A stretch of DNA of 64,000 bases from positions 10,728,501 through 10,792,500 of the forward strand of contig OX344755.2 in NCBI GenBank assembly GCA_947034885.2, written 5' to 3'. Shown here piece after piece: positions 1 to 57,136 of the stretch. The translations under genes and the position numbers were made by a program. How positions within the stretch are numbered: position 1 is the first letter of the stretch; each line of letters starts with the position of its first letter. The notes below the pieces were generated by a model. That model made no database searches. It had not been told where the DNA came from and was given only the letters and a program-made list of their open reading frames with translations. Origin of the DNA: Thuidium tamariscinum (lineage: Eukaryota; Streptophyta; Bryopsida; Hypnales; Thuidiaceae).

Positions 1-1329
1 TTGTACAAAGCAGTCTCAATTAGGTGAATTAGGTGGTGTTAGGTTAATAGAATGTTGTTGCATAGGCACCCTTACAATTGTCCTAAGTGTGGAATCTCAT
101 GATAGTTTAGCTTCTTTGTCCGTAGCTACAATCTCAATTGCCATCTGCAATATTTACAATAACAGCTTAGCAAGTCTATTCAAGGTAATTCAACCAATGA
201 CAAACACAACTATCGACATACCTATTGTAGTCCCAAAAATTATTCTGGTGTACATAGATGTGCCTTTTAAAATGTATTACACAAAAAGAAGTGGCACTGC
301 AATAGGCTTGTCTAGAGTTGTGCACGTCATAGGCTGAGTTGAACCTTAGAGCAAACCTCATGCAAGCCCTTGTCAATTTCAATGTCTTCATTTAGCAAAA
401 TTCCATCTAAACGGCATAGTCCACCCTCAGAGAAGAAGAAATGAAATGATGGAGCCGGGAGAGGAGAGGATGGAGTGCATATCCTTACTTCTCGTTGCGT
501 TGTATTGTGCATGAAATATAATGTGCAAATTGAATTCCATATCTGTCGGCACAAGCTACCGTTACTGTAGAAGCAAATGAAATATCGCCAATTTCATCGA
601 ATTGATGCCAACACATTTAGGATATATGAAAGTGAAGTGAAAACCCAGTCCGACAGGAATCTGAACGATGATTCTACTTGGAAATGAGCTATTTTTTAGT
701 CTTAGAATTTCACAAAAGAGGCAAATTCTCTAATTTTGTGCAATCGCACATGAAATCAGTCTAGAATGATGTTCCGATCCATGCCTTCATATGTCAGGCT
801 TCCGGGGATCAGGATTCTAGGTAGGAGTCACTCCACAAATTGGCTCAATTGCATAAAAATGGAGTGATGCACCCTGAGGCAAGGAAAGAAATGAAACGAA
901 CTACGGAGCGGAAGAGGGATGGGGTGGAACTCGTAGGATAGTGGTGCACAATGTTATGCACGAAATGGAATTTGCAGACATTGACACAACAAGCTTCCAG
1001 TGGATGTCAAATTAACGAGCAAGAACCACGGTTTTAACAAATATGAGCAACATGCACTTTCACTCATTTCCAAGCTCTGAAAACCTAAAATCATTTCAGA
1101 AGTTGAGTAGACACAAAAGTCGAAACAACATTAAAATCGAGAGTGGAACCAAAAGTAAGAATCCGTTCGGAAATCTCAGTCTGCAATCTCAATCTCAATC
1201 TGCAACGAGATGTGAATCACGTTGCTCAGGATCCAGCTCCTGTGCTTGCACGCTACAATGCACTGGATCAAGGTCCTCCATTCCTGGATTCAACTGCACA
1301 CGACACAAACAACAGACTGAATCTAACGG
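1..1329. other. Gene-free left edge with diverged direct repeats
   Basis: No gene recognised. Two related segments occur in tandem, about 405-560 and 870-1010, each with a 'caccct(c/g)ag' start and a 'tgcatgaaat / tgcacgaaat' end. The segment 640-810 resembles 8140-8300, the downstream flank of CHS copy 2, in the same orientation. Short open frames at 1043-1394 overlap in different frames and show no recognisable protein family. Confidence 0.5.
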
Positions 1330-1677
1330 AATTGATGAGCGACGAGGGTGCAAATTGGAAGAGACTTTCCGGAAACTCATATTTTGATGAATGATTTGTT
1401 TGCATCGATTCCTCCTGCTGGCTGTGGATTTCAATTGGAGATCACAATGCACAGACGGAGCTGCACTTACATCAATGAATGGGGTTGCAACCGTTGCAAC
1501 CAAAGAATGGACCTCCCTACTAACTAGGAAGAATGTTGATCCAACTTGGACCTTTGTACAATTGTCTAAAGTACACTGATGTGATCAGCTGCACCAAAAA
1601 TGAACTCGCTGGAAGAACAATGCCAGACGAAAACCAATTCTGAGCATCCCGTCATCGGCAGTCGTGACCGGGCTTAG

Positions 1678-3138
1678 CTATTGATTGGCTGCGGCCCGGA
1701 GCACCAGCACCTCCAGCGTCAGGCCCGGACCGAACCCGATGAAGAAGCCGAAGTCGCTGCCCTCACCCAGCGTCGAAGAACCCAGCTTCAACGACCTCCG
1801 ACGAATCTGGTCCAACACGAACAACACCGAAGAGCTCGACATGTTGCCGTACTCCAGCAGCACGTCGCGGCTGCCCTGCATCTTGTCCTTCGAAAGCTGC
1901 AGCTTCGCCTCCACCTGGTCCAGGATGGCGGGGCCGCCCGGGTGCACGGCCCAGAACATCTCGTTCCACGCGGGGGAGCCCACGCACTTGCGCGCCTCCG
2001 TCAAAAACTTCTCGATGTTCTTCGAGATCAGCCCGGGAACGTCCTTCATCAAGTGGAAGATGAGCCCGGCCTCCGTGAGATGGCCGTCGATGGCGCCATC
2101 GCTTTCCGGCAAAATGGTCTCCCCGGCCCAGTGGACCTCGAACAAGGCCTTCTCCACTTGCGGCTTGGGGTCCGACCCGACCACGTACACGCCCGCGCCG
2201 TCCCCGAACAGCGCCGAGCCCACCAGCCCGTCCAAGTGCTGCTCGCTCGGCGCGCGGTACGTCACGGCCGTGACCTCGCTGCACACGGCCAGCACGCGCG
2301 CGTTCTTGTTGTTCTCGGCCAAGTCCTTGGCCACGCGCAACACCGAGGCGCCGCCGAAGCACCCGGTTTGGTACATCATGACGCGCTTCACGGTGGGCTT
2401 GAGTCCCAGCAGCTTGGCCAGCGCGTGGTCGGCGCCGGGCATGTTCACGCCGCTGGTGGTGGCGAAGACGATGTGCGTGATGTCCGACTTGCGTCCACCC
2501 CACTCCTTGATGGCCTTGAGCGCGGCCTCCGCCGCGAGCTTGGGCACCTGCACCACCACGATGTCGTGTCGCGCGTTGAGCGAGGGCTCCATGTACGTGC
2601 AGATGCCTGGGTTGGCCTTGAGCACCTCCTCCGTCAGGAACAGGTGTCGCTTTCGGATGCCGGACTTGTCGCCTGCGGAATGGGGTCAAACATACATCAC
2701 GTCAATTTCATTCCGTGAGGGCTGCATCTTTCTTCGAATTCACCCCATTCAAATCAAATCAAATTGGGGTAGACTACGAAACGGAGCTTGCGTAGGAATC
2801 GAAATTTCCTCCAATCGATCACCCACATGGAACTACTTCATGTGATTCAACGGGAGGCAATCAAGGCAGGTGGATCAGAATGAGAGTTCAGACAAGTGAA
2901 TTGAATTGTGTCCGTCGATGCATGCGGCTCTGGTTGGTCACTTACAGATGCGCTTGAACTTGGCCTTGAGCGCCTCCTTCTCGTTGCAGTTGGTGATGTT
3001 GAAGAAGAAATCCGGGTACTCCGATTGCAGAAACTCCGTGGGAGGCACGGCAGTGCCGATGCCCAACACACACGCCGGTCCGTCCGCACGAGGCTGTCGC
3101 CTGGGGAGCACGGGGCTCACCGCAGTCTGAGAAGCCAT
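1678..3138 (-). CDS. CHS: Chalcone synthase, copy 1 (exons 3138-2946 and 2672-1678)
   Basis: Type III polyketide synthase that condenses p-coumaroyl-CoA with three malonyl-CoA to give naringenin chalcone, the entry step of flavonoid synthesis (cytosolic in known plants). The spliced product is 395 residues, a normal CHS length. A 273-nt intron (2945-2673, GTAAGT...CAG) splits the Cys codon after KRI, the conserved intron site of plant CHS genes. Visible active-site residues are Cys169 in GCFGG, Phe220, Phe270, His308 and Asn341, with Thr137, Gly261 and the GFGPG loop at 377-381; these match alfalfa CHS C164, F215, F265, H303 and N336 with an offset of 5. The ATG sits in a good plant context (gcaATGGC). 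It is the mirror image of the plus-strand copy at 5955-7415 and encodes an identical protein. Function is well supported by residues; whether this copy is expressed is unknown. Confidence 0.95.
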
Positions 3139-3370
3139 TGCGACGAGAGAGCTCGCTCGCTCCTACTGACCGTCGAAGTGGGAAGTGCGTGCTACTCGCG
3201 GTGCAAGCTAGCCTCCCGTCTGGAAGTCGAATGAATGAGAGCTTTGTAACTGGGAATCGAATCCAAGGCTTCTGTCTGTCACTGAGGTGTACTGGAGTGT
3301 GATCGCCAGTTGCTGGAGTGCTGGGGATTGATGTTTGCTGTTGTGAGGATTGGATGCAGGGTTTCAGGGT

Positions 3371-3377
3371 CTTTATA
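3371..3377 (-). promoter_or_regulatory. TATA box of CHS copy 1
   Basis: TATAAAG on the minus strand, 234 bp upstream of the ATG at 3138. The mirror-image gene has the same box, and so does the third CHS gene at nearly the same distance. This predicts transcription starting about 30 bp downstream and a 5' leader of roughly 200 nt. Confidence 0.7.
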
Positions 3378-3882
3378 GTGCTTGTGTCGAGCGACGCGGC
3401 GTCACTTTTGCGGAAGAGCGTGGGATGCAGGGAAGTCGTCCTGCGGGGAAAAGCAAGGAATGGCCCACCATGGGATCGAGAACGGATAAATGGTTAGAAT
3501 ATGAGAATGTCAACTCTTCGTTGTGCCTTTGTTGTTGACATCTGTTTGAAATTTTGGTTGCTCTCCTCCAAATGTGATGACTTCTTCGTTGGCTGTGTCC
3601 CACAAAGCAGAGACGGGTACCCAACGACTGACTGTTCGAGAGACTCCAACTGAACTTCCTACAAACAAACCCATTCACTCTCCAAGGAGGTGGAGCACCA
3701 CATTAACCACGGAAGAGTGGACTGGTGACCGTGGAAATCATCCTTTATAGTACAATGTAAGTCATCTACAATATTTGAAAGAAATCACAACTATTGTGCA
3801 GGACCTTTGGTTTTTGCACAAAATTCCAAGGATGAACACCTACATTTCTATCTAATGTAGAAGGATTCTTTGTCATCCACTG

Positions 3883-5210
3883 GACAATAAATATCAAAAG
3901 CATTATAAGCAAGAGTGTTTTTTTTGGCAAAGTTTCATTAAATTGACAAAATTTTGACGTCTATTTAATTGTCCTTCCCTCTAAATCTAGCTTGTGCAAC
4001 AAGGACAGAGGGAGAGGACAATAGTCCAAAATAAAAGCCCTAGTTACTAGTGTTAATTCTATAAAAATAGATTGGTCATGGTGGAAATAATCATTTTAAG
4101 CATAGTCTAAATCATATTAGTAAAGAATTCAGAAGCATTTGGGTGATTGCAAGAAACACTTTTCTTATTTTGTATCACATGGTGCATGTTGATTTGTTTT
4201 TTGGCCATAACTTTTGTGTGTTGGCTTCAAATGACTTAAGATTTATAGGGAAGTTACTCATGACTATCAGACATGTTCCCTAATTTTTTCATAATTTTCA
4301 AAAATAATTTACTATCTAAAAATAGACCCCAATTGAATGTAACACTTTGTAGTTTAGGATTTTTTAGTGCTAAAGGGTACCTTTTCTTAATGATTTTGAC
4401 ATGAAATTTGGATGATGTAGTCTACTAATAGACTTCTAGCTCTTTATGGAAGTATTTTTTAAAGTAGTTAATTTTATGTGGAGTGGAAGTCTACAAAATG
4501 AGCTTCTTTCTACTCGTATTTTGAAACATATAAAATATTATTTTGGTGGTTTTTTTGGTGAATAACCATCTCTATAGAATTGTTGCAAATGGATTTTTAA
4601 AATTTTTAAAATTTAGTTATTTTTACTATTTTTTCCTAATTAGAACATGAAGGTATGTATTTTCTTGAGGTTTGGTACTTTTCAAGTTCTCCTACTTAGA
4701 GAATTTTTCTATGCAATTCCTTTAGTGGGTCCCTTTATCCTAAAGTGCATATATAAGTCATATTTTTTAATTTTAAAAAAATTATTTTTTTAATTTTAAA
4801 GTACTCCAAAAAAAAGTCATGAGTATTGTTGCAAAACACAACAAATAGTATGTTTTTTACAATCACCTACTTTCTAAAGGTGAAACTACTGAGCTAGATC
4901 TCTTCTTTTTGCACAAAATTGCAAGGATGAATCCAAAGAAGCACCATCAATTGATATGGAAATTCTTTCATATGAATGTAACCTTGTGAAAAGCAAGTGC
5001 TTTAATTTTTTTAGGGTCTAGGAGAGGACTTTGGTCAATTCAAACACTAATATCTTGCAATAAACACAATAAAAAAGTTCTTAATGTTTTTTCATCTTTT
5101 CAATAAAGTAAACTACATGATCTTAAAGGTGCATGTGTCCAAAAATGTTTTTTTTTTTTTTAAAATTAGGTACATATATTAGAAATGACAATATTGATGA
5201 AAATATTGTC
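3883..5210. other. Spacer between the CHS palindrome arms
   Basis: AT-rich spacer without coding potential. It holds a 727-bp terminal-inverted-repeat element (4141-4867). The right part (about 4900-5080) resembles the long AT-rich element found at 58086-59283. The stretch 3883-4140 is AT-rich with nothing recognisable. Confidence 0.8.
4141..4867 (-). mobile_element. 730-bp TIR element, copy in CHS spacer
   Basis: Begins GGGTGATTGCAAGAAACACT and ends with a diverged reverse complement (ACAATCACC). The interior, with a conserved 'GGCCATAACTTTTGTGTG' stretch near its start, aligns in reverse orientation with the copies at 20597, 21941 and 29797. It has no open reading frame of note, so it is a non-autonomous DNA transposon. 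No clear target duplication is left. Confidence 0.75.
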
Positions 5211-5715
5211 CAGTGGATGACAAAGAATCCTTCTACATTAGATAGAAATGTAGGTGTTCATCCTTGGAATTTTGTGCAAAAACCAAAGGTCCTGCACAAT
5301 AGTTGTGATTTCTTTCAAATATTGTAGATGACTTACATTGTACTATAAAGGATGATTTCCACGGTCACCAGTCCACTCTTCCGTGGTTAATGTGGTGCTC
5401 CACCTCCTTGGAGAGTGAATGGGTTTGTTTGTAGGAAGTTCAGTTGGAGTCTCTCGAACAGTCAGTCGTTGGGTACCCGTCTCTGCTTTGTGGGACACAG
5501 CCAACGAAGAAGTCATCACATTTGGAGGAGAGCAACCAAAATTTCAAACAGATGTCAACAACAAAGGCACAACGAAGAGTTGACATTCTCATATTCTAAC
5601 CATTTATCCGTTCTCGATCCCATGGTGGGCCATTCCTTGCTTTTCCCCGCAGGACGACTTCCCTGCATCCCACGCTCTTCCGCAAAAGTGACGCCGCGTC
5701 GCTCGACACAAGCAC

Positions 5716-5722
5716 TATAAAG
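5716..5722 (+). promoter_or_regulatory. TATA box of CHS copy 2
   Basis: TATAAAG at 5716-5722, upstream of the ATG at 5955. It is the exact mirror of 3371-3377. The leader that follows (5750-5954) is conserved in all three CHS copies. Confidence 0.7.
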
Positions 5723-5954
5723 ACCCTGAAACCCTGCATCCAATCCTCACAACAGCAAACATCAATCCCCAGCACTCCAGCAACTGGCGATCACACTCCA
5801 GTACACCTCAGTGACAGACAGAAGCCTTGGATTCGATTCCCAGTTACAAAGCTCTCATTCATTCGACTTCCAGACGGGAGGCTAGCTTGCACCGCGAGTA
5901 GCACGCACTTCCCACTTCGACGGTCAGTAGGAGCGAGCGAGCTCTCTCGTCGCA

Positions 5955-7415
5955 ATGGCTTCTCAGACTGCGGTGAGCCCCGTGCTCCCCAGGCGACAGC
6001 CTCGTGCGGACGGACCGGCGTGTGTGTTGGGCATCGGCACTGCCGTGCCTCCCACGGAGTTTCTGCAATCGGAGTACCCGGATTTCTTCTTCAACATCAC
6101 CAACTGCAACGAGAAGGAGGCGCTCAAGGCCAAGTTCAAGCGCATCTGTAAGTGACCAACCAGAGCCGCATGCATCGACGGACACAATTCAATTCACTTG
6201 TCTGAACTCTCATTCTGATCCACCTGCCTTGATTGCCTCCCGTTGAATCACATGAAGTAGTTCCATGTGGGTGATCGATTGGAGGAAATTTCGATTCCTA
6301 CGCAAGCTCCGTTTCGTAGTCTACCCCAATTTGATTTGATTTGAATGGGGTGAATTCGAAGAAAGATGCAGCCCTCACGGAATGAAATTGACGTGATGTA
6401 TGTTTGACCCCATTCCGCAGGCGACAAGTCCGGCATCCGAAAGCGACACCTGTTCCTGACGGAGGAGGTGCTCAAGGCCAACCCAGGCATCTGCACGTAC
6501 ATGGAGCCCTCGCTCAACGCGCGACACGACATCGTGGTGGTGCAGGTGCCCAAGCTCGCGGCGGAGGCCGCGCTCAAGGCCATCAAGGAGTGGGGTGGAC
6601 GCAAGTCGGACATCACGCACATCGTCTTCGCCACCACCAGCGGCGTGAACATGCCCGGCGCCGACCACGCGCTGGCCAAGCTGCTGGGACTCAAGCCCAC
6701 CGTGAAGCGCGTCATGATGTACCAAACCGGGTGCTTCGGCGGCGCCTCGGTGTTGCGCGTGGCCAAGGACTTGGCCGAGAACAACAAGAACGCGCGCGTG
6801 CTGGCCGTGTGCAGCGAGGTCACGGCCGTGACGTACCGCGCGCCGAGCGAGCAGCACTTGGACGGGCTGGTGGGCTCGGCGCTGTTCGGGGACGGCGCGG
6901 GCGTGTACGTGGTCGGGTCGGACCCCAAGCCGCAAGTGGAGAAGGCCTTGTTCGAGGTCCACTGGGCCGGGGAGACCATTTTGCCGGAAAGCGATGGCGC
7001 CATCGACGGCCATCTCACGGAGGCCGGGCTCATCTTCCACTTGATGAAGGACGTTCCCGGGCTGATCTCGAAGAACATCGAGAAGTTTTTGACGGAGGCG
7101 CGCAAGTGCGTGGGCTCCCCCGCGTGGAACGAGATGTTCTGGGCCGTGCACCCGGGCGGCCCCGCCATCCTGGACCAGGTGGAGGCGAAGCTGCAGCTTT
7201 CGAAGGACAAGATGCAGGGCAGCCGCGACGTGCTGCTGGAGTACGGCAACATGTCGAGCTCTTCGGTGTTGTTCGTGTTGGACCAGATTCGTCGGAGGTC
7301 GTTGAAGCTGGGTTCTTCGACGCTGGGTGAGGGCAGCGACTTCGGCTTCTTCATCGGGTTCGGTCCGGGCCTGACGCTGGAGGTGCTGGTGCTCCGGGCC
7401 GCAGCCAATCAATAG
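5955..7415 (+). CDS. CHS: Chalcone synthase, copy 2 (exons 5955-6147 and 6421-7415)
   Basis: The same 395-residue chalcone synthase as the minus-strand copy at 1678-3138, with all catalytic residues present (Cys169, His308, Asn341). Exon 1 ends at 6147 before a GTAAGT donor, the 273-nt intron ends CCGCAG at 6420, and the split codon gives Cys65. The paired coordinates of the two copies always sum to 9093 (3138 with 5955, 1678 with 7415), so there is no indel between them from ATG to stop, intron included. The gene diverges from copy 1 across a 2.8-kb shared upstream region. Its 3' flank (7416 to about 8040) resembles that of the third CHS gene at 26971-28424 further than copy 1's flank does, which suggests this copy keeps the older context. 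Confidence 0.95.
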
Positions 7416-8302
7416 CTAAGCCCGGTCACGACTGCATGACGGGACGCTCAGAATTGGTTTTCGTCTGGCATTGTTCTTCCAGCGAGTTCATTTTTTGTGC
7501 AGCTGATCACATCAGTGTACTTTAGACAATTGTACAAAGGTCCAAGTTGGATCAACATTCTTCCTAGTTAGGTAGGTCCATTCTTTGGTTGCAATGGTTG
7601 CAACCCCATTCATTGATGTATGTGCAGCTCCGTCTGTGCATTGTGATTTCCAATTGAAATCCGCAGCCAGCAGGAGGAATTGATGGAAGCAAATCATTCA
7701 TTAACATTTAAGTTTCCGGAAAGTCTCTTCCAATTTGCACCCTCGTCGCTCATCAATTGCATAATTTATAGTTTAAGATTGCGGATTGCTTTGCAGTCGA
7801 ATCATGCCATTTCGTCTTATAACCCAGTCTGTCGTAGAGGGCGAGCACGAGAGCGGAATTTCAAGATATGTTGTCTACTGTTTTTTGCCGTCAATTCTAA
7901 TTGGTTCCCACCCTCGTTTCCACTGAACTTCCGAATAAATTATAGGTTTTCCGAGCTTGCTTACAGGTGAAGCGCGTGTTTCAGACCTCGGGTTTGCTGG
8001 ATGGCGTGCATCTCATCGTCTGCAGGAACTCATGGTGTAGCAGTATTTGCAGGTTTAAACAGCAATCCTTAAACTGAACAGTCCGTATATATTACTATTT
8101 CAGGAGCATCAAATATAGCAACATAGGATGTAGCGACTTGTTGTCACAGCGGAATCGGAAAGATGATTCTGCTTGTACGTGAGTGTCCGCTTTTGAGTGC
8201 CGGAGTATTAATTTAACAGCATACATTCTCTAATTTTTTGCAACTTCTCATGAAATCCGGATGAACATTCCATGCCTCTTTCTGTCAAGCTTGCAGGGGA
8301 AG
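7416..8302. other. 3' flank of CHS copy 2
   Basis: 7416-7766 is the diverged outer part of the palindrome (about 3-4 percent different from 1330-1677 by eye). 7767-8040 continues to match, in reverse, the flank of CHS copy 3 at 26390-26640, including the shared stretch around the 'GTCGTAGAGGGCGAGCAC' motif. 8140-8300 matches 640-810. There is no coding sequence. Confidence 0.65.
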
Positions 8303-26970: not shown

Positions 26971-28424
26971 CTATTGATTGGTTGCGGCCCGGAGCACCAG
27001 CACCTCCAGCGTCAGGCCCGGACCGAACCCGATGAAGAAGCCGAAGTCGCTGCCCTCACCCAGCGTCGAAGAACCCAGCTTCAACGACCTCCGACGAATC
27101 TGGTCCAACACGAACAACACCGAAGAGCTCGACATGTTGCCGTACTCCTGCAGCACGTCGCGGCTGCCCTGCATCTTGTCCTTCGAAAGCTGCAGCTTCG
27201 CCTCCACCTGGTCCAGGATGGCGGGGCCGCCCGGGTGCACGGCCCAGAACATCTCGTTCCACGCGGGGGAGCCCACGCACTTGCGCGCCTCCGTCAAAAA
27301 CTTCTCGATGTTCTTCGAGATCAGCCCGGGCACGTCCTTCATCAAGTGGAAGATGAGCCCGGCCTCCGTGAGATGGCCGTCGATGGCGCCATCGCTTTCC
27401 GGCAAAATGGTCTCCCCGGCCCAGTGGACCTCGAACAAGGCCTTCTCCACCTGCGGCTTCGGGTCCGACCCGACCACGTACACGCCCGCGCCGTCCCCGA
27501 ACAGCGCCGAGCCCACCAGCCCGTCCAAGTGCTGCTCGCTCGGCGCGCGGTACGTCACGGCCGTGACCTCGCTGCACACGGCCAGCACGCGCGCGTTCTT
27601 GTTGTTCTCGGCCAAGTCCTTGGCCACGCGCAACACCGAGGCGCCGCCGAAGCACCCGGTTTGGTACATCATGACGCGCTTCACGGTGGGCTTGAGTCCC
27701 AGCAGCTTGGCCAGCGCGTGGTCGGCGCCGGGCATGTTCACGCCGCTGGTGGTGGCGAAGACGATGTGCGTGATGTCCGACTTGCGTCCACCCCACTCCT
27801 TGATGGCCTTGAGCGCGGCCTCGGCCGCGAGCTTGGGCACCTGCACCACCACGATGTCGTGTCGCGCGTTGAGCGAGGGCTCCATGTACGTGCATATGCC
27901 TGGGTTGGCCTTGAGCACCTCCTCCGTCAAGAACAGGTGTCGCTTTCGGATGCCCGACTTGTCGCCTGCGGAATGGGATCAAACATCACGTCAATTTACT
28001 TCCAGGGCACCAAAATTAAGATAAACAGCTTTCTTCGTCTCAAATCCAATTGGGGTAGACTACGAAACGGAGCTTGCGTCAGAATCGAAATTTCCTCCAA
28101 TCGATCACCCACATTGAACTACTTCATGTGATTCATCGGGAGGCAATCAAGGCAGGTGGATCAAATTGAGAGTTCAGACAAGTGAATTGAATTGTGTCCG
28201 TCGATGCATGCGGCTCTGGTTGGTCACTTACAGATGCGCTTGAACTTGGCCTTGAGCGCCTCCTTCTCGTTGCAGTTGGTGATGTTGAAGAAGAAATCCG
28301 GGTACTCCGATTGCAGAAACTCCGTGGGAGGCACGGCAGTGCCGATGCCCAACACGCACGCCGGCCCGTCCGCACGAGGCTGTCCCCTGGGGAGCACAGG
28401 GCTCACCGCAGTCTGAGAAGCCAT
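26971..28424 (-). CDS. CHS: Chalcone synthase, copy 3 (exons 28424-28232 and 27965-26971)
   Basis: Third chalcone synthase, 395 residues, with an intron of 266 nt (28231-27966) at the same Cys codon. The protein differs from copies 1 and 2 at only three places that I can see: residue 14 (Gly instead of Arg), residue 337 (Gln instead of Leu, in the segment before the catalytic Asn341) and residue 393 (Thr instead of Ala). Catalytic Cys169, Phe220, Phe270, His308 and Asn341 are intact. Homology with the other copies continues through the 5' leader and TATA region to about 29060 and through the 3' flank to about 26390, so the duplicated unit is roughly 2.65 kb. The intron and flanks have more differences than the exons, which is consistent with selection or gene conversion on the coding part. 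Confidence 0.95.
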
Positions 28425-29321: not shown

Positions 29322-30700
29322 TTAGCCCCTAAATGCCCGAGGCACCAAAATTTGGTGTTTGCATAACTTTGAAGTTAAATAAAACCTAATCAAGATCTTA
29401 TTTTTAGTGGTTTATATTTTTGAAAATTTCTTTTTGAAGTCTAGTTTAAGCATCCAAAAACCAATCTTGAAAATGATTGGTTTTGATTTTTCTATTCAAG
29501 GTTTTGTGCAAGGGTGTCCATTGCAATCTTGACTTTCTATAGTCTTAAGGGCTCTTGGAAATGAGCCTCAAATACACTAAATCATGGAGGAAAAAACACA
29601 TTAGAAATTCATTTAAAAAAAATTGTAGAAGAGATTTTGAAAAGCTATAAATTGATTGGGGTTACGCATGTTAGGTCCTTTAACCTCATATTTTTTTGGT
29701 GACCATGCAACTTTTTTGATCGGTGACATGTGAAAGAGGATTGAAAGACTTTTTCACTTTTAACACCTTCAAGATCAAACATTATAATCTTTCAATGGGT
29801 GATTGCAAGAAACACCTACTGATTTTGTTGCGTTTGGCTGATTTTTTCGGGACTACTTTAAAATTAGAAAATTAATTTGAAAAAAATTTGAAAAATATGA
29901 ATGGTGTATATACCTCTAAGATGAAGTTTTTCACCGAAGGAAATGGATAGAAAAATTCTCTAAGTAGGAGAACTTGAAAAGTGCCAAACCTCCAGAAAAT
30001 ACATACCTTCATGTTTTAATTAGGAAAAAATAGTAAAAATAGATATTTTCAAAATATAAAAAGTGTCCATTTGCAACAACTTTATAGAGATGGTCATTCA
30101 CAAAAAAACCTAACAAAATAATATTTTATATGTTTCAAAATACAAGCAGAAGGGAGCCCACTTTGTAGACCTCCACACCACATAAAATTAACTATTTTTA
30201 AAAATCCTTCCCTGGAGAGCTAGAAGTCTATTAGAAGACCATCTCATCCAAATTTCATTTTAAAATCATTAAAAAAAGGTACTCCATACTGTACTTAAAA
30301 CCCCTAAACTGCAAAGTGTGACATCCAATCGGGGTCTATTTTTGGATAGTAAATTATTTTTGAAAATTATGAAAAAATTATGGAAGGTTTATGGTAGTTA
30401 TGAGTACCTTTCCTACAAATCTTGAGTCAATCGGAGCCAAAACACAAAAGTTATGGCCAAAAAACAGATCAGCACACGTAGTGTGACACAAAATAGGACA
30501 AGTGTTTCTTGCAATCACCCCAATCTATTATTGATATTGTTGTGTTTTCTTTATTTAAGTGATCTCTAACATGTCTAGTTCAAATTCATATGGTTACAAT
30601 TTAATAAAAAATTCATAAAGCTTATGAAAATGTTGTCTTTTTGTTCAATGTAGAGCAAATTCCTAGAAGCTCGAAAAAGGCCTTAGGCATTTAGGGGTAG
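29322..30700 (+). mobile_element. TTAA-type 654-bp MITE, copy 2, interrupted
   Basis: Aligns end to end with 9811-10464 once the nested element 29797-30520 and its 4-bp duplication are removed (651 bp left). Ends read TTAGCCCCTAAATGCC and GGCATTTAGGGGTAGA, so both TTAA sites have mutated. Confidence 0.75.
29797..30520 (+). mobile_element. 730-bp TIR element, best-preserved copy
   Basis: Almost perfect inverted ends, GGGTGATTGCAAGAAACACC and GTGTTTCTTGCAATCACCC. It is flanked by CAAT on both sides (29793-29796 and 30521-30524). The empty site in the related repeat at about 10285 has no insertion there, so CAAT is a 4-bp target duplication. It is 724 bp and has no coding capacity. Confidence 0.85.
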
Positions 30701-32493
30701 AATGGTTCCTTTTGGGAACAGATCCTAATTCTTTATATTGTCTTCTTGTTTTAAAGTCAACTCCCTACAATAGTTAGTAGAAGACTAGAAGCTTACAACC
30801 TATTTCCAATCATTGAAGGAATCCAATAAAGATTTTAGAAACATTTACTGGGAGAAAAAAATGTTATGTAGGAAAATAGATTTTAGATACATCTATAAAT
30901 TTTGAAAATTTTTCACCCTTAAACAAGAATACCATGAATTATTTTTATCAAGATTTTGTAAAATCTATTTTTGATATTTGGTATGTCTAATTTGGACCAT
31001 AGGTTGGTCAAGAAATCCAAAGGAAATCAAAGGTTCATACTGGATTATAATTAATGGACCCATTTTTCTTACCTCCAATGTTCAGAGATAGAACATCCAA
31101 GATTTTGGGCAAGATTCTAGAAATGGGTCAACTACCTTAGTTGTATATTTTTGAGGCCCCAAAGTAGTTGGTAGACGAGTATCAAGATTTCTATAGAAGC
31201 AAAGAGTTCACCTATTGGTTTATAAAATGAATTATTTTTGGCAAAGGATCTTGGTTAACAATCTTGTGTTTTTAGGGTTAAATTATTTAAAAGGAAAATA
31301 ATAACTTCACTTGAATAACTTGAGTATTTACTATAGTCAATCTTATGCTTGATATTATTTATACTTATCCAAAAAGTGACCCTTATTTGTCAATAAGAAG
31401 ATTAAAAAATGTACACAAAATCTCAAAATTGCCCTATCAAAAAACTCTCAAAATTGCCATTTCTATTGCATTTACCAAAGAAAAAAAAACATTTTTTTAG
31501 AATCTAACCATAGGATCTTGTATTTAACTTGACTGAGATCATGTGGTAAAATTTTATGAAGTCTGACAATATAGATTAAAAGATATGAGCATTATAAGTT
31601 GAAAAAACAATTTTTTTTTAATAGAAGTCTACAATTTCAAATGACTTTGACTACCATTTGTGAAAAAAAATTTCACTATAGAATTTGAATTTTGAATTTT
31701 TTGTGTTAAATAATTGAATTTAGAGTCTAGAAAAAAATTCACAAAAAGAACACTTGATTACTATTCTTTAAAAAATTATTAAATAAAAGTAGTTCCAAGA
31801 TTCAAAGAAAAACTAAATGGTTAATAGCTCTAGAATGGGAGTGAAAGACAGTAATCCTAATGGTGAGATTGTTCTAGCAAGTAAATGTAACCTTGCCCAA
31901 CAATTTTTTTGTGAAGAATTGTGAAATTTTCATTAAAAAATGAATCCTATAACTTATTTTTCCAAAAAGACATTTAGATTGCTTGAAAAAAAAGATTGTC
32001 TATAATTTTCTTATTACTAGTCCAAATTGAATGAATCAAATGTTCACATGTAGACAAAAATATACTATTTCATGAAAAAAAAATTTAATTTAACTTTGAC
32101 CTTTTTACAAAAAAAATTTGTTGCTTGCCAGGTTTAATTTTGAACCTTTCATTGTATAACTTTTTCTACTAGGTATCAATTCAGTTGAAAATTATATTTC
32201 TTCAAAGCTAATTAGTTTTTCTATCTTATGAGAAAGTTTCAAAAAGTTTTATAAAAATTTGAAGTCATAAGAACCTGCCCCAAATCCATTTTGTCCCCTA
32301 AGGGCACAATGGTCCTTTAGAGGTTAAGTACAAACTACAATTAGCTTCTTGCTTCCATTCAAGAAAGCTAGTTCCCAAGGGTATTCAAACTTTCAATCAA
32401 TTTTCTGCACTACGATTAACAAAACAATTGCGGTAATTCAAAAAATGATTCAAGGAAGAGGTAGTGAACCTCCTAGAGCAAATTTGGGGCCTC
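30701..32493. repeat. AT-rich repeat DNA, including an element related to copy (i)
   Basis: About 31490-32327 aligns with the family of 14379-15331 and its flank (shared 'AACCATAGGATCTTGTA' motif) and ends CCTTTAGAGGTTAA, a diverged TTAA-type end. No coding sequence was seen in the whole interval. Confidence 0.5.
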
Positions 32494-32870: not shown

Positions 32871-33765
32871 TTAATTGCAAACATGAATTCTGAATTTGCA
32901 AATTTCAATCATCCATGGATAATAAAAAATTTCAGCGTTTTCCCGAGTGGCCGAGCAGGAGGTCAGTTCACCCCGGCCGAGGACGAAGGGGGTTGGGCAA
33001 CGCACTCAGCGTGGAAGGGAGTTGGGCAAGGCAGCGTGCGAAGGGCCCCACTGCGGCGATTGCCACGCAAAGCCCCCGAAAAGCTCGAGGGGGGGGTACG
33101 GGACAATCCAATTTCAACACTGACAGTGTCCTGAAGACCTGGAACTCTGGAACCGGGATGCCCGGGCACAGCGCAAAACACTGACACGCAGACTTTCACG
33201 GTGTGACGGTGAAAATTTCCACCAGGATCCCCGACCCCCTTTCAACTTCTCTCAGCTCCTTTCCACGCACTTTTTGAAGTCCTCCGAAACTAATTGAAAC
33301 TGCCCCGCGTTGTCTGAAAAACATGCCCAATTGCCCACTAAGTCGGGAGACCCAAAGTTCGTCACCACTAATTGCCAATCTCGCCCGCTTACAAATACAG
33401 ACCTTTGCGATCCCAATTCCTCATCTCCCTCACCTACATTGTTAGCAGTGCATCATTCGGGTTTCATCAACTTCGAGCTTGCCTACCGTGAATATATCTG
33501 CAACCACACTTGCTAGACATAGTTAAGAATGCAGTTGCAAACACAATCGGCTGTTCGATAGGATACGAATTTCATTCTCGAGATCAAGTCGAAATTCTTA
33601 CATTGTTGAAAATTGAGAGGACGTTTGCTCACCGAGAACGCTTGAAGGATTGATCCGGTGCATTACGAAGTTGGTCTGTGTAGAGTTCGTCGAATTCGGG
33701 GAGCAGCTACGGTAGATCCTCGATTGATTGCTGAGATCACCTGGGAGCTCGAGGATATATACCCA

Positions 33766-35958
33766 ATGGCAGCTGTGGACTTTGACATCATGGCGTCGTC
33801 CCTGAGCTACATGAATGCGGGATCCGAGCCCGCCTTGAAGAAACCGACCCCAGCCCCCAGCTTCGAATTCTGCAATAAGGGCTCCCAAGAAGAATCCCGA
33901 GCAGATCCGCTCAACTGGGCGAAGACGGCCGCGAAGTTGCAAGGGAATCATCTGGAGGAGATCAAGCAGATGGTGGCGACGTACTTCGACTCCACCGAAG
34001 TGGCGATTGAGGGAGTCAATCTCACGGTGGGACAGGTCACGGCCATCGCGCGCCGGCCCGACGTGGCGGTGGTGCTGGACGCGGCCAACGCCAAGGCGAG
34101 AGTGGACGAGTCCTCCAACTGGGTGTTGACGAAGATCATGAACGGTGGGGACATCTACGGAGTGACCACGGGATTCGGCGCCACCTCCCATCGCCGCACG
34201 CAGCAAGGCGTGGAGCTGCAGCGTGAGCTCATTCGCTTTTTGAACGCGGGCGTGCTGGTGAAGGGGCACTCACTGCCCACGGAGACCACGCGCGCAGCCA
34301 TGCTGGTGCGCACCAACACATTGATGCAGGGGTACTCCGGAATCCGTTGGGAGATTTTGGAGGCCATGGAGAAGCTGCTGAACGCGCACGTCACTCCCAA
34401 GCTGCCGTTGCGTGGGACGGTCACTGCTTCCGGGGATTTGGTGCCCTTGTCTTACATTGCGGGGCTGCTCACTGGCCGACCCAACTCGCGTGCTTGCACT
34501 CCGGATGGCCGGGAGGTTTCGGCGTTGGAGGGGCTGCGGATGGCGGACGTGGAGAAGCCGTTCGAGCTGCAGCCCAAGGAGGGACTGGCGCTGGTGAATG
34601 GGACCGCCGTGGGGTCGGCATTGGCCTCCACGGTGTGCTTCGACGCCAACGTGTTGGCGCTGCTTGCGGAAGTGTTATCCGCCTTGTTCTGTGAAGTGAT
34701 GCAAGGGAAGCCGGAATTCGCTGACCCTTTGACGCACAAGCTGAAGCATCACCCGGGACAGATGGAAGCTGCAGCGGTGATGGAGTGGCTATTGGACGGG
34801 AGCGACTTCATGAAAGCTGCGGCCAAGATCAATGAGACCGATCCCTTGAAGAAGCCCAAACAAGATCGGTATGCGTTGCGCACTTCACCCCAATGGTTGG
34901 GTCCCCAGATCGAGGTGATCCGCACCGCCACGCACACCATCGAGCGCGAGATCAACTCCGTGAACGACAACCCCATCATCGATGCCGCGCGTGGCATCGC
35001 GTTGCATGGGGGCAACTTCCAGGGCACCCCTATCGGTGTCTCCATGGACAACATGCGCCTGGCACTGGCGGCCATCGGCAAGCTCATGTTTGCGCAGTTC
35101 TCCGAGCTCGTGAACGACTACTACAACAACGGCCTGCCTTCCAACTTGAGCGGTGGACCCAACCCCAGCCTGGACTACGGGATGAAGGGCGCCGAGATCG
35201 CCATGGCGTCGTACCTGTCCGAACTCAACTACCTCGCCAATCCCGTCACCACCCACGTCCAGAGCGCGGAGCAGCACAACCAGGACGTGAACTCGCTGGG
35301 CTTGGTTTCCGCACGCAAGACGGAGGAGGCCGTGGAGATTCTGAAGCTCATGAGCTCGACCTTCCTGGTGGGGCTGTGCCAAGCCATCGACCTCCGCCAT
35401 GTGGAGGAGACCATGCAGTCCGCCGTGAAGCAAGTGGTGTTGCAGGTGGCCAAGAAGACTCTCTTCATGGGCCAGGACGGCGCCCTCCTGCCGTCGCGCT
35501 TCTGCGAGAAGGACCTCCTGCTCGTGGTGGAGCGGCAGCCCGTGTTCTCGTACATCGACGACGCGTCCTCCGACACGTACCCGTTGATGGAGAAGCTGCG
35601 AGGCGTGCTGGTCAGCCACGCCCTCAAACACGCCTCCAGCTCCGTGTTTGAGCAGATCCCCGTTTTCGAGACCCAAGTGCAAGAGCGGCTGCGCACGGTG
35701 GTGCCCTTGGTGCGGGAAGCTTACGACAAGAAGGGCTTGTCGGCGGTGCCAAACAGGATTGAGTCCTGCAGGACGTACCCACTGTACCAATTCGTGAGGT
35801 CGGAGCTCGGGACGCAATTGCTGTCCGGATTGCGGACTGTGTCTCCCGGGACTGAAATTCAGAAAGTGTTCGAGGCGATGTCGGAGGGGAAGCTGATTCG
35901 ACCGCTTTTGCAGTGCGTGCAAGGATGGACTGGCGCTCCTGGCCCATTCCCCTTGTAA
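33766..35958 (+). CDS. PAL: Phenylalanine ammonia-lyase, intronless
   Basis: Converts L-phenylalanine to trans-cinnamate and ammonia, the first step of phenylpropanoid metabolism. Single exon of 730 residues from the ATG at 33766 (context caATGGC); a second in-frame ATG at 33790 would give 722. The Ala-Ser-Gly triad that cyclises to the MIO cofactor is at 221-223 within [17 protein letters not shown]. Catalytic Tyr132 lies in YGVTTGFG. Phe158 in the RFLNAG loop is the residue associated with Phe rather than Tyr preference. [16 protein letters not shown] and YYNNGLPSN are all present, and the C-terminus ends GAPGPFPL as in plant PALs. All domains are complete. The first 60-70 residues are a variable plant-type N-terminal extension. 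PAL normally works as a cytosolic tetramer. Confidence 0.95.
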
Positions 35959-49979: not shown

Positions 49980-51419
49980 TAAATGAGGATGGTTCAAGAA
50001 TACCGAGGAAGCGAAATATGAGACTATGACATTCCATCTTATATCTTAAGTAATTTTTTGAGTTATTATAAGATAGAAAGAATACACTAAAAAGAATGCA
50101 TTAAAGTTTTATTAGGAGTGGCCTATGAATGCACACTTTCGTACGAGTCCTTTCTAGGGAAGTGGTGCTCTTTGTTGGCCATGTGCATAGGTCAATTTTT
50201 AATTCACATGCATGCTCATTCACTATGACTTCCACCATTTTCTAGCATGTGTGCTAAACAAGTCTACGATTAACTTAATTGGTTCATAGCCTCGTCAGGT
50301 GCCATTACTGATGTACTTTGTGAGTAACATTGCCTCCCTACTACCCCTTCACTTGAGAAAATCATAAGTAATTGAAACCAAGGTACAAAATTCTGGAAAA
50401 ACAAAGCTTCTTATAGTTCATAATTTGCCTTCCTTTGAAAATTATTTCCATATTTTTCCACTCCTTACATTTCCATACAGACCTTCATTTCTTGTTAAAT
50501 GCTCCATTTTTTAGCCTCTTACCTTATAATGAGGGCTTTTTTGGGGGGGGGGGCGAATTTTTTTGCCAAATGTATCAAAATGTGACAAACCAATAGTGGT
50601 CCCTCCCAAAATTGGGTGGTGCAACAAGGCCGGCACATGGAACATCAAAGATGCTTGTGTATGAATATAGAAGTGTGAGCCTACGAGCCTTGAACCTAAG
50701 TATAAGTAAGTATCATGCACTTATTAAAGTTTATAACATAAATACCTAGAATACAGGTGTTTAGAACATAGATATACTATAACCATTAAGGTGTCTATAA
50801 TATAGACACCTATACTATAGGTGTATAGAATTCTAGGCTCATAGGCTTAGACTTTCTATAGTGACATACTAGCAACCATGCACGGGACATTGGTAAAAAA
50901 TAAAAAAATTGTTGTAAATTATATGGATTTTTTTGTTGGTGATGTTCTTTGCATTTGGGCATAGGAGACACTACTCAAAAAAAAAAAGCCTTGTTGTAAG
51001 TTACATGGAATTTTATGTGAAGTGATGTTCTCTACATTTTGGCACGGGAGTAGTGAGTATTTAATATGTGCTAACTTTTTATTGAGGTTTTATTAGTATT
51101 TTAGAGGGCCCCATTACTAACCAGCACCCCATCAACAATCAATAGGGTACCATGTTTCCAACCAAAGTTGGAATGGATTTTCATTTTTTCCCTAGGATGC
51201 ATATTTTTGTACTTTTTTCAAAGTTTGGACCAATGAGTTCATATCATGTAAGTGAGCAAGAAAGTAGGAAATAATGAGCAAGAAAGTGGTTCTTGAATGA
51301 TCTAAATTGAATTATGCTAGATGTTAATCATGGGTCAAACCCAACTTTTGCCTTTCAAAATTCTTAGTAATTTCAATTCATGAGATAAAGTTACCAAATT
51401 TTTTGCAATCTCCATTATA
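49980..51419. other. AT-rich intergenic DNA
   Basis: No gene seen. It includes a G-run (about 50535-50553) and a short hairpin around 50791-50812 (AGGTGTCTATAATATAGACACCT, split by its AT centre). Confidence 0.4.
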
Positions 51420-52233
51420 GTGGAAACACCCAAAACCGTCAAAATAAGGAATTCAGCATAGTTGGAGGCAGCTTTTTCTAAAACTAATAATTTTCCAGTA
51501 TTAGCGAGTGAAAATCATGAATATTAAAAAAAATCTAATTTTTCGGAATCAATATGTAATTTCTATAAATTTTCAAAGTGTTGGCTCCCTAGACCACTGG
51601 AACCGTCCTAGGTGTACCTGTAATTGAACACCTGTTGAAATCAGTTGTCAGTGAATGAAAACTATACATGTGTTTTACAACTGCATCAGCAAATTAGAAT
51701 TAAACATTTGTGGGACGCTTTAATGAATGCTTATGGACAGATTTAGTGGTACTCTAGAGTCCAAGAATAGGTACAGGGATGGAAATGGGTGTTTCTCTCT
51801 TATTTTTGTCAATGCACCTCTGAAAAGATTTACTTTTGCCTTGCACTAAGGGAGAAACACCCATTCCCGTCCCTATACCTATTCCAGGTCCCTAGAGTGT
51901 CACTAAATCTGTCCATAAGCGTTCATTAAAGTATCTGACAAGTGTTTAACTCTAATTTGCTGACGCAGTTGTAAGACACATGTATAACTTTCATTCACTG
52001 ATAACTGATTTCAACAGAGTTCAGTTTAGGGTACACCTATAGGACGGTTCCAGTGGTCTAGGGAGCCAACTCTTTCAAAATTTGTAGAAGTTACATACTG
52101 ATTCCGAAAATTTTAATTTTTTTTTTGAATATTCATGATTTTCTCTCGCTAATACTAGAAAAATATCAGTTTTAGAAGAAGATGCCTCCAACCATGCTGA
52201 ATTCCTTATTCGGACGGTTTTGGGTGTTTCCAC
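51420..52233. mobile_element. Foldback element, TA-flanked, 814 bp
   Basis: Two arms of about 380 bp in inverted orientation, outer ends GTGGAAACACCCAAAACCGT and ACGGTTTTGGGTGTTTCCAC, centre near 51826. With the next bases the ends read TA-(C/T)AGTGG and CCACTG-TA, that is, TIR CAGTGGAAACACCC with TA on both sides, as in Tc1/mariner-like elements. No coding capacity. A half copy is at 32494-32870. Confidence 0.85.
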
Positions 52234-53139
52234 TGTACCCTAGATCCTGTCCAGATCCTGTTCCTATTTTAACGGTTATGGATCCCTCTGCCATATTTCT
52301 TGATCGGTCGAGTTACAATCATAGTGTTGTTGATGGAGTAATTGAATTGCCTGTCTGACACAAAGTCACGGACTATTTGGGGAGTAATAAGGTTCAGTGG
52401 CTTCAGTCTGCGCAGTTCATCATAACTTAGTGCATGGGCCGGCAGAGAGGATTGTGACATTATTTGTCTTTCTGAAATCTGGACAGTCATGCTGGCACTA
52501 AGTTACCTTATTTAGACTCTTAGGCCCAGCTTCCATGTGAGTCAGGCCAGTAGCAAAAGTGCTAAGGTAAGAGGTCCTATTATGGACCATCCAAGGGCTG
52601 AAACTGAATTTCAGGGAGGTAAAACTTCTAAAAATATTTTTCAGTAAATTCACCTTGAAAGACTAGTAGAATTGACATCTAACCCAAGTGGTTTCATATT
52701 TTTTTAAGCTGTGTGGAATTAGTTATAAAATTTTGAAGTTGAAGTGGCATAGGGCTCTAAAATGGAGCACCTCCTAAAATGTACACAATTTGTACATTGT
52801 TGAAGGCTATGAAAAAAACATGTACAAATTGTGTACATTTTAGGAGGTGTTCCATTTTAATGCCTATTCAATTTAAGGACCTCCTACCTTGTAAGACAAG
52901 TAGCTCCCATCGATTGTCTTGCCGACCTCAGTGAACACAGAAGCAAGTTCCCAAGTTTCACCGATATTGGTGGACGAGGCCTTTGGTGGAGATAGGTGAA
53001 ACTTCAAGAAAATCATTACATGTGCTTTTTTTTACTCGATATCACTCACCCATTGGGTCCACATAGAAGTGTCATCACTTACTTGTCACTGTAGCTCTCC
53101 CTTCCAAGTTCTACCCACCCGGTTCACATGGAAGCTAGC

Positions 53140-56386: not shown

Positions 56387-57136
56387 TTAACCTCTAAAGG
56401 ACCAAGCTATGTTTTTTTGGCAACGTACTGATTTTGGGTAGCTCACCATGAATGGAGTTTTTATTTTTTTTCATTGAAATTTTCACACAACTTGCACCCA
56501 AGGAGTAGCTTTAAGGCCCAACAATTTTCATAGCATTTGACTATGTAGTTAAAAAGTTATTGCATGATATGTGATTTCCTTTAATCTCTGGGCAGCCTGG
56601 GCAGCTCAAAAAACTTCTTAGAAATGATGTTTTTGGAAAAATGAAAGATTGAAATTGATTCTTTAGAATTTTGTGTATGCGTAAAGCTTTGAATCATTCC
56701 ATTTGGACTCATGAAGTGAAAGTTATGAGGAATTTTAGTTTGTGGGTAGGAATGGTTTTTGAAGAGTCCATACCTACTCGCAAACTAAAATTCCTCATAA
56801 CTTTCACTTCATGAGTCCAAATGGAATGATTCAAAGCTTCATGCATACACAAAATTCTAAAGAACCAATTTCAATCTTTCATTTTTCCAAAAAAGTCATT
56901 TTAAGAAGTTTTTTGAGCTGCCCAGGCTGCCCAAAGATTAAAGGAAATCACATATCATGCAATAACTTTTTAACTACATAGTCAAATGTTATAAAAATTG
57001 TTGGGCCTTAAAGCTACTCCTTGGGTGCAAGTTGTGTGAAAATTTCAATGAAAAATAAATAAAAACTCCATTCATGGTGAGCTGCCCAAAATCACTATGT
57101 TGCCAAAAAAACGCAGCTTGGTCCTTTAGGGGTTAA
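56387..57136. mobile_element. Long TTAA-type foldback element, 750 bp
   Basis: Almost perfect palindrome. Mirrored positions sum to 113523 from the outer TTAA (56387 with 57136) and again at an internal check point (56419 with 57104), so the arms of about 365 bp balance with little or no net indel. Outer ends are TTAACCTCTAAAGGACC and GGTCCTTTAGGGGTTAA. The unpaired centre is about 25 bp near 56762. A transcript would fold into one long hairpin. Its right half is related to the last part of 14379-15331 and its left half to the first part of 58086-59283. Confidence 0.9.

What the first reader, a model, noticed from the sequence alone, without database searches (positions are those of the whole stretch)
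1330..7766. CHS palindrome with perfect arms and an abrupt loss of identity at the stop codons
Two divergent CHS genes form an inverted repeat. From the stop codons inward (1678-3882 and 5211-7415) every compared base is the same and there is no indel over 2.2 kb, intron and promoter included. Directly past the stop codons the same alignment continues for about 350 bp, but with roughly 3-4 percent differences and small indels. A single recent inversion-duplication would leave uniform divergence, so recent gene conversion across the hairpin is the simplest reading. An assembly artefact that copied one consensus into both arms is the main alternative.
Basis: partly seen in the sequence, partly recalled or inferred. 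Interest (0 to 1): 0.75.

Follow-up and report, generated by a model that had tools for sequence, protein, structure and literature searches.

The report
Moss CHS palindrome homogenised by conversion
Two mirror-image copies of a moss flavonoid gene are identical, most likely because one copy has repeatedly overwritten the other, and neighbouring copies of this gene elsewhere in the genome show similar signs.

Summary
The palindrome is real. Arms 1658-3889 and 5204-7435 are 2232 bp without a difference. On the 3' side identity falls in steps: 2/113 differences, 12/210, then 34-47% beyond 1330. Uniform divergence is rejected (Fisher p = 2e-13).

New and decisive is a change of ancestry near 1330. 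Inside it the left (L) and right (R) copies are sisters. A 74%-identical relict of the distal promoter lies on the inner side. So L looks like an older CHS locus overwritten by R-type sequence, then homogenised again.

Eighteen CHS copies were compared. The 19 pairs less than 34 kb apart share exact runs of 218-3355 bp; the 134 other pairs share at most 181 bp. Five further pairs have exact cores inside diverged flanks.

Gene conversion is well supported; an assembly artefact is unlikely but not excluded. The process is known from nematode inverted gene pairs and human Y palindromes, and was suggested for moss arrays. This is a clear new example.

The parts
1658..3889 (-). Left perfect arm (L): CHS gene with promoter, intron and 20 bp of 3' flank; 100% identical to 5204-7435
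5204..7435 (+). Right perfect arm (R)
1678..2672 (-). L CHS exon 2 (stop at 1678)
   Evidence: R coordinates mirrored
2946..3138 (-). L CHS exon 1 (ATG at 3138)
5955..6147 (+). R CHS exon 1
6421..7415 (+). R CHS exon 2; 395-aa protein, Pfam PF00195 + PF02797
1330..1657 (-). Outer imperfect part of L arm (14 substitutions and 5 gap positions against R); edge of an inferred older conversion tract
7436..7758 (+). Outer imperfect part of R arm
1047..1300 (-). Inferred relict 3' flank of the older resident L gene, collinear with flanks of R, C and 14.8x copies but strongly diverged
   Evidence: (nhmmer E=3.2e-18)
7759..8012 (+). R outer 3' flank, homologous to copy C (15-19% mismatches where aligned)
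4063..4138 (-). Inferred relict distal promoter of the resident L gene, first piece, in L orientation
   Evidence: 115/155 identical over both pieces; 0 of 500 shuffles as good
4870..4968 (-). Relict distal promoter, second piece, split from the first by the transposon
4139..4869 (.). Transposon-like element with terminal inverted repeats in the spacer (edges approximate); a relative at 29798-30524, 82-84% identical
26971..28424 (-). Third CHS copy (C); exon 1 4/193 and exon 2 9/995 differences from the arms; intron 13/251 plus 37 gap positions in one alignment
   Evidence: the alignment has more mismatches, concentrated in the 3' half of the intron (28/143 at R 6290-6439)

Best explanation
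The left gene was an independent, older CHS locus in inverted orientation next to the right gene. An ectopic homologous repair event copied R-type sequence over it, with its outer edge near 1330. At least one later event re-copied the gene body between the arms, with its outer edge at 1658, so 2232 bp are now identical. On the inner side the copied tract ends at 3889, where L-R homology stops; an old promoter relict lies 173 bp further in. This suggests that this end was joined without homology. A similar process homogenises neighbouring CHS copies elsewhere in this moss genome. Shown: the identity step, the homology and stronger divergence of the outer flank, the promoter relict, and the exact cores in other pairs. 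Inferred: donor and recipient for the first event, the number of events, the one-sided joining and the repair pathway. The direction of the latest event is unknown.
For: Exact 2232-bp arms including promoter and intron, with 0/178 fourfold differences in exon 2. Stepwise loss of identity. In the inner flank L+R are sisters (support 97/95) and R+C is rejected (AU p=0.040). In the outer flank L+R is rejected (p=0.047) and the L end branch is 0.41 against 0.13 (R) and 0.066 (C). The L outer flank is homologous (E=3.2e-18). A relict promoter lies in L orientation (score 40, best of 500 shuffles 28, opposite orientation 16). Longest L-R run shares 334 of 560 polymorphic sites, 0 of 10,000 permutations (see limits). 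Parallel cases: 14.86a/b 3355 bp exact beside an upstream flank with 11-17 differences per 100-bp bin; 27.89a/b 1002 bp exact, nearly all exon 2, while exon 1 has 27/185 differences and the intron 92/314 plus 134 gap positions; 21.54 and 21.57 pairs near-identical inside flanks without clear alignment. The 19 pairs less than 34 kb apart have runs of at least 218 bp; the 134 others have at most 181 bp, median 41.
Against: Both AU tests are only just below 0.05, rest on 300 and 243 columns, and were chosen after the flank pattern was seen. In the outer flank the R+C clade has weak support (62/21) and a clade of L+R+C is not rejected (p=0.288), so L's exact age is open. The permutation test is not specific: two pairs on different contigs, 27.89a/21.57a and 27.89a/21.58, also gave 0 and 1 of 10,000 with runs of 26 sites, so slow exons beside fast flanks alone can produce low values; R-C gave 380 of 10,000; 15 pairs were tested without correction. 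With C as outgroup, the L-R differences in 1330-1657 are 7 L-specific, 5 R-specific, 1 three-state and 1 where C is gapped; this patchiness hints at exchange with other copies. No bias toward G+C on the L/R branch (9 W>S, 8 S>W, 5 neutral). The stretch 3890-4062 shows no homology to the arm promoter, so the inner junction is not fully explained. Proximity and recent duplication are partly confounded. No reads, no other species and no population data.
Confidence: 0.85

Rival explanations
1. Assembly artefact: one consensus was written into both arms, so the true arms differ.
For: No reads or coverage could be examined; exact identity over 2232 bp is also what a collapsed repeat would give.
Against: The same assembly keeps differences in comparable arms: 21.57a/b, 3.2 kb apart, 3 in the intron and 12 in exon 2, 9 of the latter in its last 100-bp bin, and 14 substitutions immediately outside the exact arms here. 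Exact cores with diverged edges recur at other loci, with different boundaries. The arms are 2.2 kb, short for long-read data, but the sequencing method is unknown.
Confidence: 0.07
2. A single recent inverted duplication of R, with no conversion; the edge differences come from local mutation or a different origin of the flank.
For: A recent duplication would also give identical promoter, intron and exons. The inner arm edge is abrupt, with no L-R homology found beyond 3889/5204.
Against: Uniform divergence rejected (p=2e-13). The outer boundary is a stepwise change within a collinear homologous flank, not a jump to unrelated DNA. Relicts of an older L-oriented locus lie on both sides.
Confidence: 0.06
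3. Strong purifying selection or codon bias keeps the coding parts identical.
For: CHS proteins are very conserved in this family: R and 14.84 differ non-synonymously in only 3 codons of exon 2.
Against: Intron and 751 bp of promoter are as identical as the exons; R and 14.84 differ at 45/173 fourfold sites, so synonymous sites are free to change.
Confidence: 0.01
4. The palindrome is kept by selection for a hairpin or antisense RNA that tunes CHS dosage, as at silencing inverted repeats of CHS in soybean (recalled).
For: All five CHS pairs closer than 6 kb among the 18 copies compared are inverted; four of these five are convergent, which could give overlapping transcripts (gene positions).
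Against: L and R are divergent with promoters inside, so a hairpin RNA would need read-through from outside. Direct pairs carry long exact runs as well. No expression or small-RNA data.
Confidence: 0.05

Closest known systems
Inverted paralogous gene pairs of Caenorhabditis, kept alike by active maintenance, perhaps gene conversion (Zhao et al. 2007, PMC1803023; passages seen)
   Same: Divergent and convergent gene pairs with long near-perfect arms including intergenic DNA (2207-bp arms at the F44E5.4 locus), and cases where identity is lost part-way through the genes.
   Different: Shown there by comparison of three species; here by change of ancestry along one locus and by several pairs of one family in one genome. 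Spacer 1314 bp here, 126 bp there.
Tandemly arrayed genes of Physcomitrella, suggested to evolve in concert by gene conversion (Lang et al. 2008, not seen, as cited in PMC3045890; passages seen)
   Same: Moss; neighbouring copies unusually alike; conversion proposed.
   Different: A general statement in the passage seen; here tract edges, relict flanks and a distance effect are resolved for one family.
Human Y-chromosome palindromes (PMC3403216, start of abstract and passages seen; also PMC1803023)
   Same: Inverted arms homogenised by arm-to-arm conversion.
   Different: Much larger arms (recalled) on a non-recombining sex chromosome; here 2.2 kb, and whether C7 is a sex chromosome was not tested.
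Gene conversion among rice multigene families (PMC2277409, passages seen)
   Same: Within-chromosome conversion most frequent below 5 kb and infrequent above about 35 kb.
   Different: A genome-wide count of conversion events, 60% between same-direction genes by its own figures; here one tract of 2.2 kb with promoter, in an inverted pair.
One-end gene targeting (HR at one end, apparent end joining at the other) in Physcomitrella (PMC6521618, passages seen)
   Same: Would explain a homologous outer edge and an apparently illegitimate inner edge of the L tract.
   Different: That is transformation with added DNA; here the donor would be the neighbouring gene. Resemblance only.

Membership tests
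Gene pair homogenised by gene conversion | Identity in a bounded tract, including neutral sites, beside clearly older homologous flanks | tested here: met
Gene pair homogenised by gene conversion | Sister relation changes at the tract edge | tested here: met
   (AU p=0.040 and 0.047, named after the pattern was seen, so modest)
Gene pair homogenised by gene conversion | Concerted change across species or individuals | not testable with these tools
   No relatives of this genome are held
Palindrome whose conversion depends on inverted orientation (Y-type, hairpin) | Inverted pairs homogenised, direct pairs not | tested here: not met
   The six direct pairs also carry exact runs of 2876, 668, 548, 510, 473 and 362 bp
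Chalcone synthase family | Chal_sti_synt N and C domains; closest solved structures are chalcone synthases | tested here: met
   (387-residue match to 9jl6_A, E=3e-245)
Chalcone synthase family | Enzyme makes naringenin chalcone | not testable with these tools
   No assay
CHS silencing inverted repeat (soybean I locus type, recalled) | Hairpin or antisense transcript giving CHS siRNAs | not testable with these tools
   No RNA data

The most novel reading that the evidence does not exclude
Moss gene arrays are shaped by a natural version of moss gene targeting: a break in one copy is repaired by homologous invasion of the neighbour at one end and by end joining at the other. Whole genes with promoters are thus repeatedly overwritten within a few tens of kilobases, and inverted pairs are the stable form in which close copies survive (all five CHS pairs under 6 kb among the 18 copies compared are inverted).
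Probability: 0.25. Interest if true: 0.65.

Novelty: new member of a known kind. Interest (0 to 1): 0.42.

Why it matters
The locus gives readable tract edges for ectopic gene conversion in a moss. Physcomitrella, a model moss, has gene-targeting rates described as comparable to yeast (PMC6521618, passage). If the reading is right, CHS copy history in mosses cannot be read from coding sequence alone, because neighbouring copies are overwritten and exon trees would date old loci as young. The distinct 3' UTRs of otherwise identical genes allow expression and conversion to be measured directly.

Tried and rejected
Purifying selection alone: rejected, because intron and promoter are as identical as exons. 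Chance: not tenable for 2232 bp. Hairpin orientation as a requirement: not supported, since direct pairs carry long exact runs. GC-biased conversion: no signal (9 W>S, 8 S>W on the L/R branch; 6 and 11 on the C branch). Homology of the inner spacer 3890-4062 to the arm promoter or C promoter: none found. Homology of R's upstream flank to C's upstream flank (5030-5197 with 31448-31607): score 46 against a shuffle maximum of 42, in AT-rich DNA, so not used. A first shuffle test of the L outer flank was weak (44.5 against a null maximum of 40 for R; 45 against 49 for C); the profile search replaced it. The site-permutation test proved unspecific, because distant control pairs also gave very low counts; it carries little weight, and confidence was lowered from a drafted 0.86 to 0.85 for it.

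LHC genes as a control family: 49 matches listed, six local groups fetched. Of four inverted pairs two have long exact runs (1640 bp at C6, 617 bp at C9) and two do not (186 bp at C10, 112 bp at C1:46.9 Mb); the two direct groups reach 281 and 107 bp. This shows that exact cores are not unique to CHS and not general either; it is too small to test orientation. The LHC groups at C1:50.5 Mb, C1:0.11/0.14 Mb and C4:11.91 Mb were not fetched.

Dating with a substitution rate was not done: the look-up failed on a bad search term and was not repeated. The species was not identified. Passages of PMC3729371, PMC7010833 (no mention of gene conversion) and PMC9247546 gave nothing on conversion between moss CHS genes.

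Rows dropped: of the matches, the copy at C1:27.968 Mb (exon 2 in two overlapping pieces, one with a stop) and the weaker partial matches (C1:48.58-48.61, C2:12.95, C2:40.55, C4:1.20, C5:23.92, C7:4.53, C9:20.40 Mb) were left out; 18 copies were compared, and warns that its counts are lower bounds. Copy 14.86a was left out of the C7 trees and permutation set; in gene body and 200 bp on either side it equals 14.84 and 14.86b. Loci L001-L008 were left out of the database. The runs for 14.84/14.86a are 2873 bp and 2876, which aligns differently at the ends.
Full report
OBSERVATION. The window lies at C7:10,728,501-10,792,500 of a 363-Mb assembly in 19 contigs. The encoded CHS matches solved chalcone synthases almost end to end; that the best of these are moss enzymes, and so that this is a moss, is recalled and not from a call. 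Two divergent CHS genes form an inverted repeat whose exact arms are 1658-3889 and 5204-7435, 2232 bp, with 1314 bp between. Each gene has exons of 193 and 995 bp and an intron of 273 bp, an intact 395-aa frame and Pfam domains PF00195 and PF02797 (done for one copy; the other is identical). Past the exact arms the alignment continues over 1330-1657 / 7436-7758 with 14 substitutions in 323 aligned bases and 5 gap positions.

STATISTICS. Zero differences in 2232 against 14 in 323 gives p = 2e-13; at the flank rate 97 differences would be expected in the arm. In an alignment of seven C7 copies L and R share a run of 334 of 560 polymorphic sites, reached in 0 of 10,000 site permutations. This test is unspecific, however: two control pairs on different contigs (27.89a/21.57a and 27.89a/21.58) also gave 0 and 1 of 10,000 with runs of 26 sites. 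The argument therefore rests on the flanks.

CHANGE OF ANCESTRY. Four other C7 copies from two places (8.97, 9.00, 14.84, 14.86b) serve as outgroups. Within 20-348 bp past the stop, L and R are sisters (support 97/95), C is next, and holding R with C is rejected (p 0.040). Within 348-640 bp past the stop, L has an end branch of 0.41, R 0.13 and C 0.066, and holding L with R is rejected (p 0.047); R+C is weakly supported there (62/21), and L+R+C is not rejected (p 0.288). Both rejections are modest and were named after the pattern was seen. That the L flank is nevertheless homologous is shown by a profile of the R, C, 14.84 and 14.86b flanks, built without L, which finds 1047-1300 in the collinear orientation at E = 3.2e-18; the next matches outside these flanks have E = 0.012 (in the 14.86 loci) and 0.12 (in the window). 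On the inner side, the spacer without its transposon matches the distal promoter of the arm in L orientation over 155 aligned bases at 74% (score 40, shuffle maximum 28 of 500; opposite orientation 16). The simplest reading is that remains of an older L gene stand on both sides of an R-type gene body.

MECHANISM. Shown: a bounded identical tract, an older imperfect edge, and old homologous pieces beyond. Inferred: (1) R-type sequence replaced the older L gene, because R but not L is close to C in the outer flank (R-C 19/126 and 19/101; L-C 52/126 and 34/101); (2) at least one later conversion re-copied 1658-3889, direction unknown; (3) the inner end of the first tract was joined without homology, because 3890-4062 matches nothing in the arm promoter and the relict promoter beyond it repeats part of the arm. 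HR at one end with apparent end joining at the other is described for gene targeting in Physcomitrella (PMC6521618, passages). The spacer carries a transposon-like element with terminal inverted repeats and a relative near C.

OTHER CHS COPIES. Eighteen copies were compared; one search warns that its counts are lower bounds. The C7:14.86 pair is exact over 3355 bp, with 11 to 17 differences per 100-bp bin from -1500 to -1100. The C1:27.89 pair is exact over 1002 bp, nearly all of exon 2, while exon 1 has 27/185 differences and the intron 92/314 plus 134 gap positions. The C3:21.54 and 21.57 pairs are about 99% alike in the gene and have flanks without clear alignment. The C3:12.89/12.93 pair has 697 exact bp with 16/200 differences just downstream. 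The 8.97/9.00 pair is less clear, with 18/995 in exon 2 and no run over 218 bp. The 19 pairs less than 34 kb apart share exact runs of 218-3355 bp; the 134 other pairs share at most 181 bp, median 41. Recent duplication may contribute to this contrast. All five pairs under 6 kb are inverted, but the six direct pairs carry long runs as well (2876, 668, 548, 510, 473 and 362 bp), so a hairpin does not seem to be required. In a small control, LHC genes, two of four inverted pairs also carry long exact runs (1640 and 617 bp), two do not (186 and 112 bp), and the two direct groups reach 281 and 107 bp.

ARTEFACT. Without reads it cannot be excluded. Against it: the assembly keeps differences between arms 3.2 kb apart at C3:21.57 (3 in the intron, 12 in exon 2 of which 9 in its last 100-bp bin) and 14 differences just outside the arms here, and exact cores at other loci end at other places.

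WHAT IS KNOWN. Inverted gene pairs kept alike, perhaps by gene conversion, are described in nematodes (PMC1803023, passages). Concerted evolution of tandem arrays by conversion was suggested for Physcomitrella (Lang et al. 2008, not seen, as cited in PMC3045890, passages). Distance-dependent conversion is known in rice (PMC2277409, passages). Among the titles and abstract starts listed by ten searches of the held open-access library (the lists were capped) I saw no paper on conversion of moss CHS palindromes. Most subscription papers are not held, so this is no proof of absence.

VERDICT. A real and well-supported case of gene conversion, probably recurrent, in a CHS family whose neighbouring copies show the same signs; a new member of a known kind.

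Noticed in passing
window 33658-35958 (+): Uninterrupted phenylalanine ammonia-lyase-like frame (Pfam Lyase_aromatic, E=2e-149, on 33790-35955) about 5 kb from CHS copy C. Neighbouring PAL and/or CHS genes are also reported for Marchantia (PMC7010833, passage).
   Followed up: partly
window 1425-1595 against 1378-1407: With copy C as outgroup, six L-specific substitutions and no R-specific one lie at 1425-1595, whereas 1378-1407 holds five R-specific, one L-specific and one three-state site; possible small exchanges with other copies.
   Followed up: partly
window 5187-5210: Short hairpin GACAATAT-TGATGAAA-ATATTGTC at the inner edge of the right arm (read); could mark the old junction.
   Followed up: no
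G000:C1:27.885-27.899 Mb (L016, L017): Convergent CHS pair identical over 1002 bp, nearly all exon 2, with strongly diverged exon 1 and intron; the sharpest tract seen.
   Followed up: yes
L029, L030 (C6:0.563 and 0.633 Mb): Inverted LHC-like genes about 69 kb apart with a 1640-bp exact core, further apart than the CHS pairs that share long runs.
   Followed up: partly
G000:C1:27.968 Mb (L018): Broken CHS copy (exon 2 in two overlapping frames, one with a stop), left out of the comparison.
   Followed up: no
window 56387-57136, 51416-52237: Other inverted repeats: a 750-bp near-palindrome (94%) and one of about 820 bp (85%), both with relatives elsewhere in the window; they look like mobile elements.
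   Followed up: no
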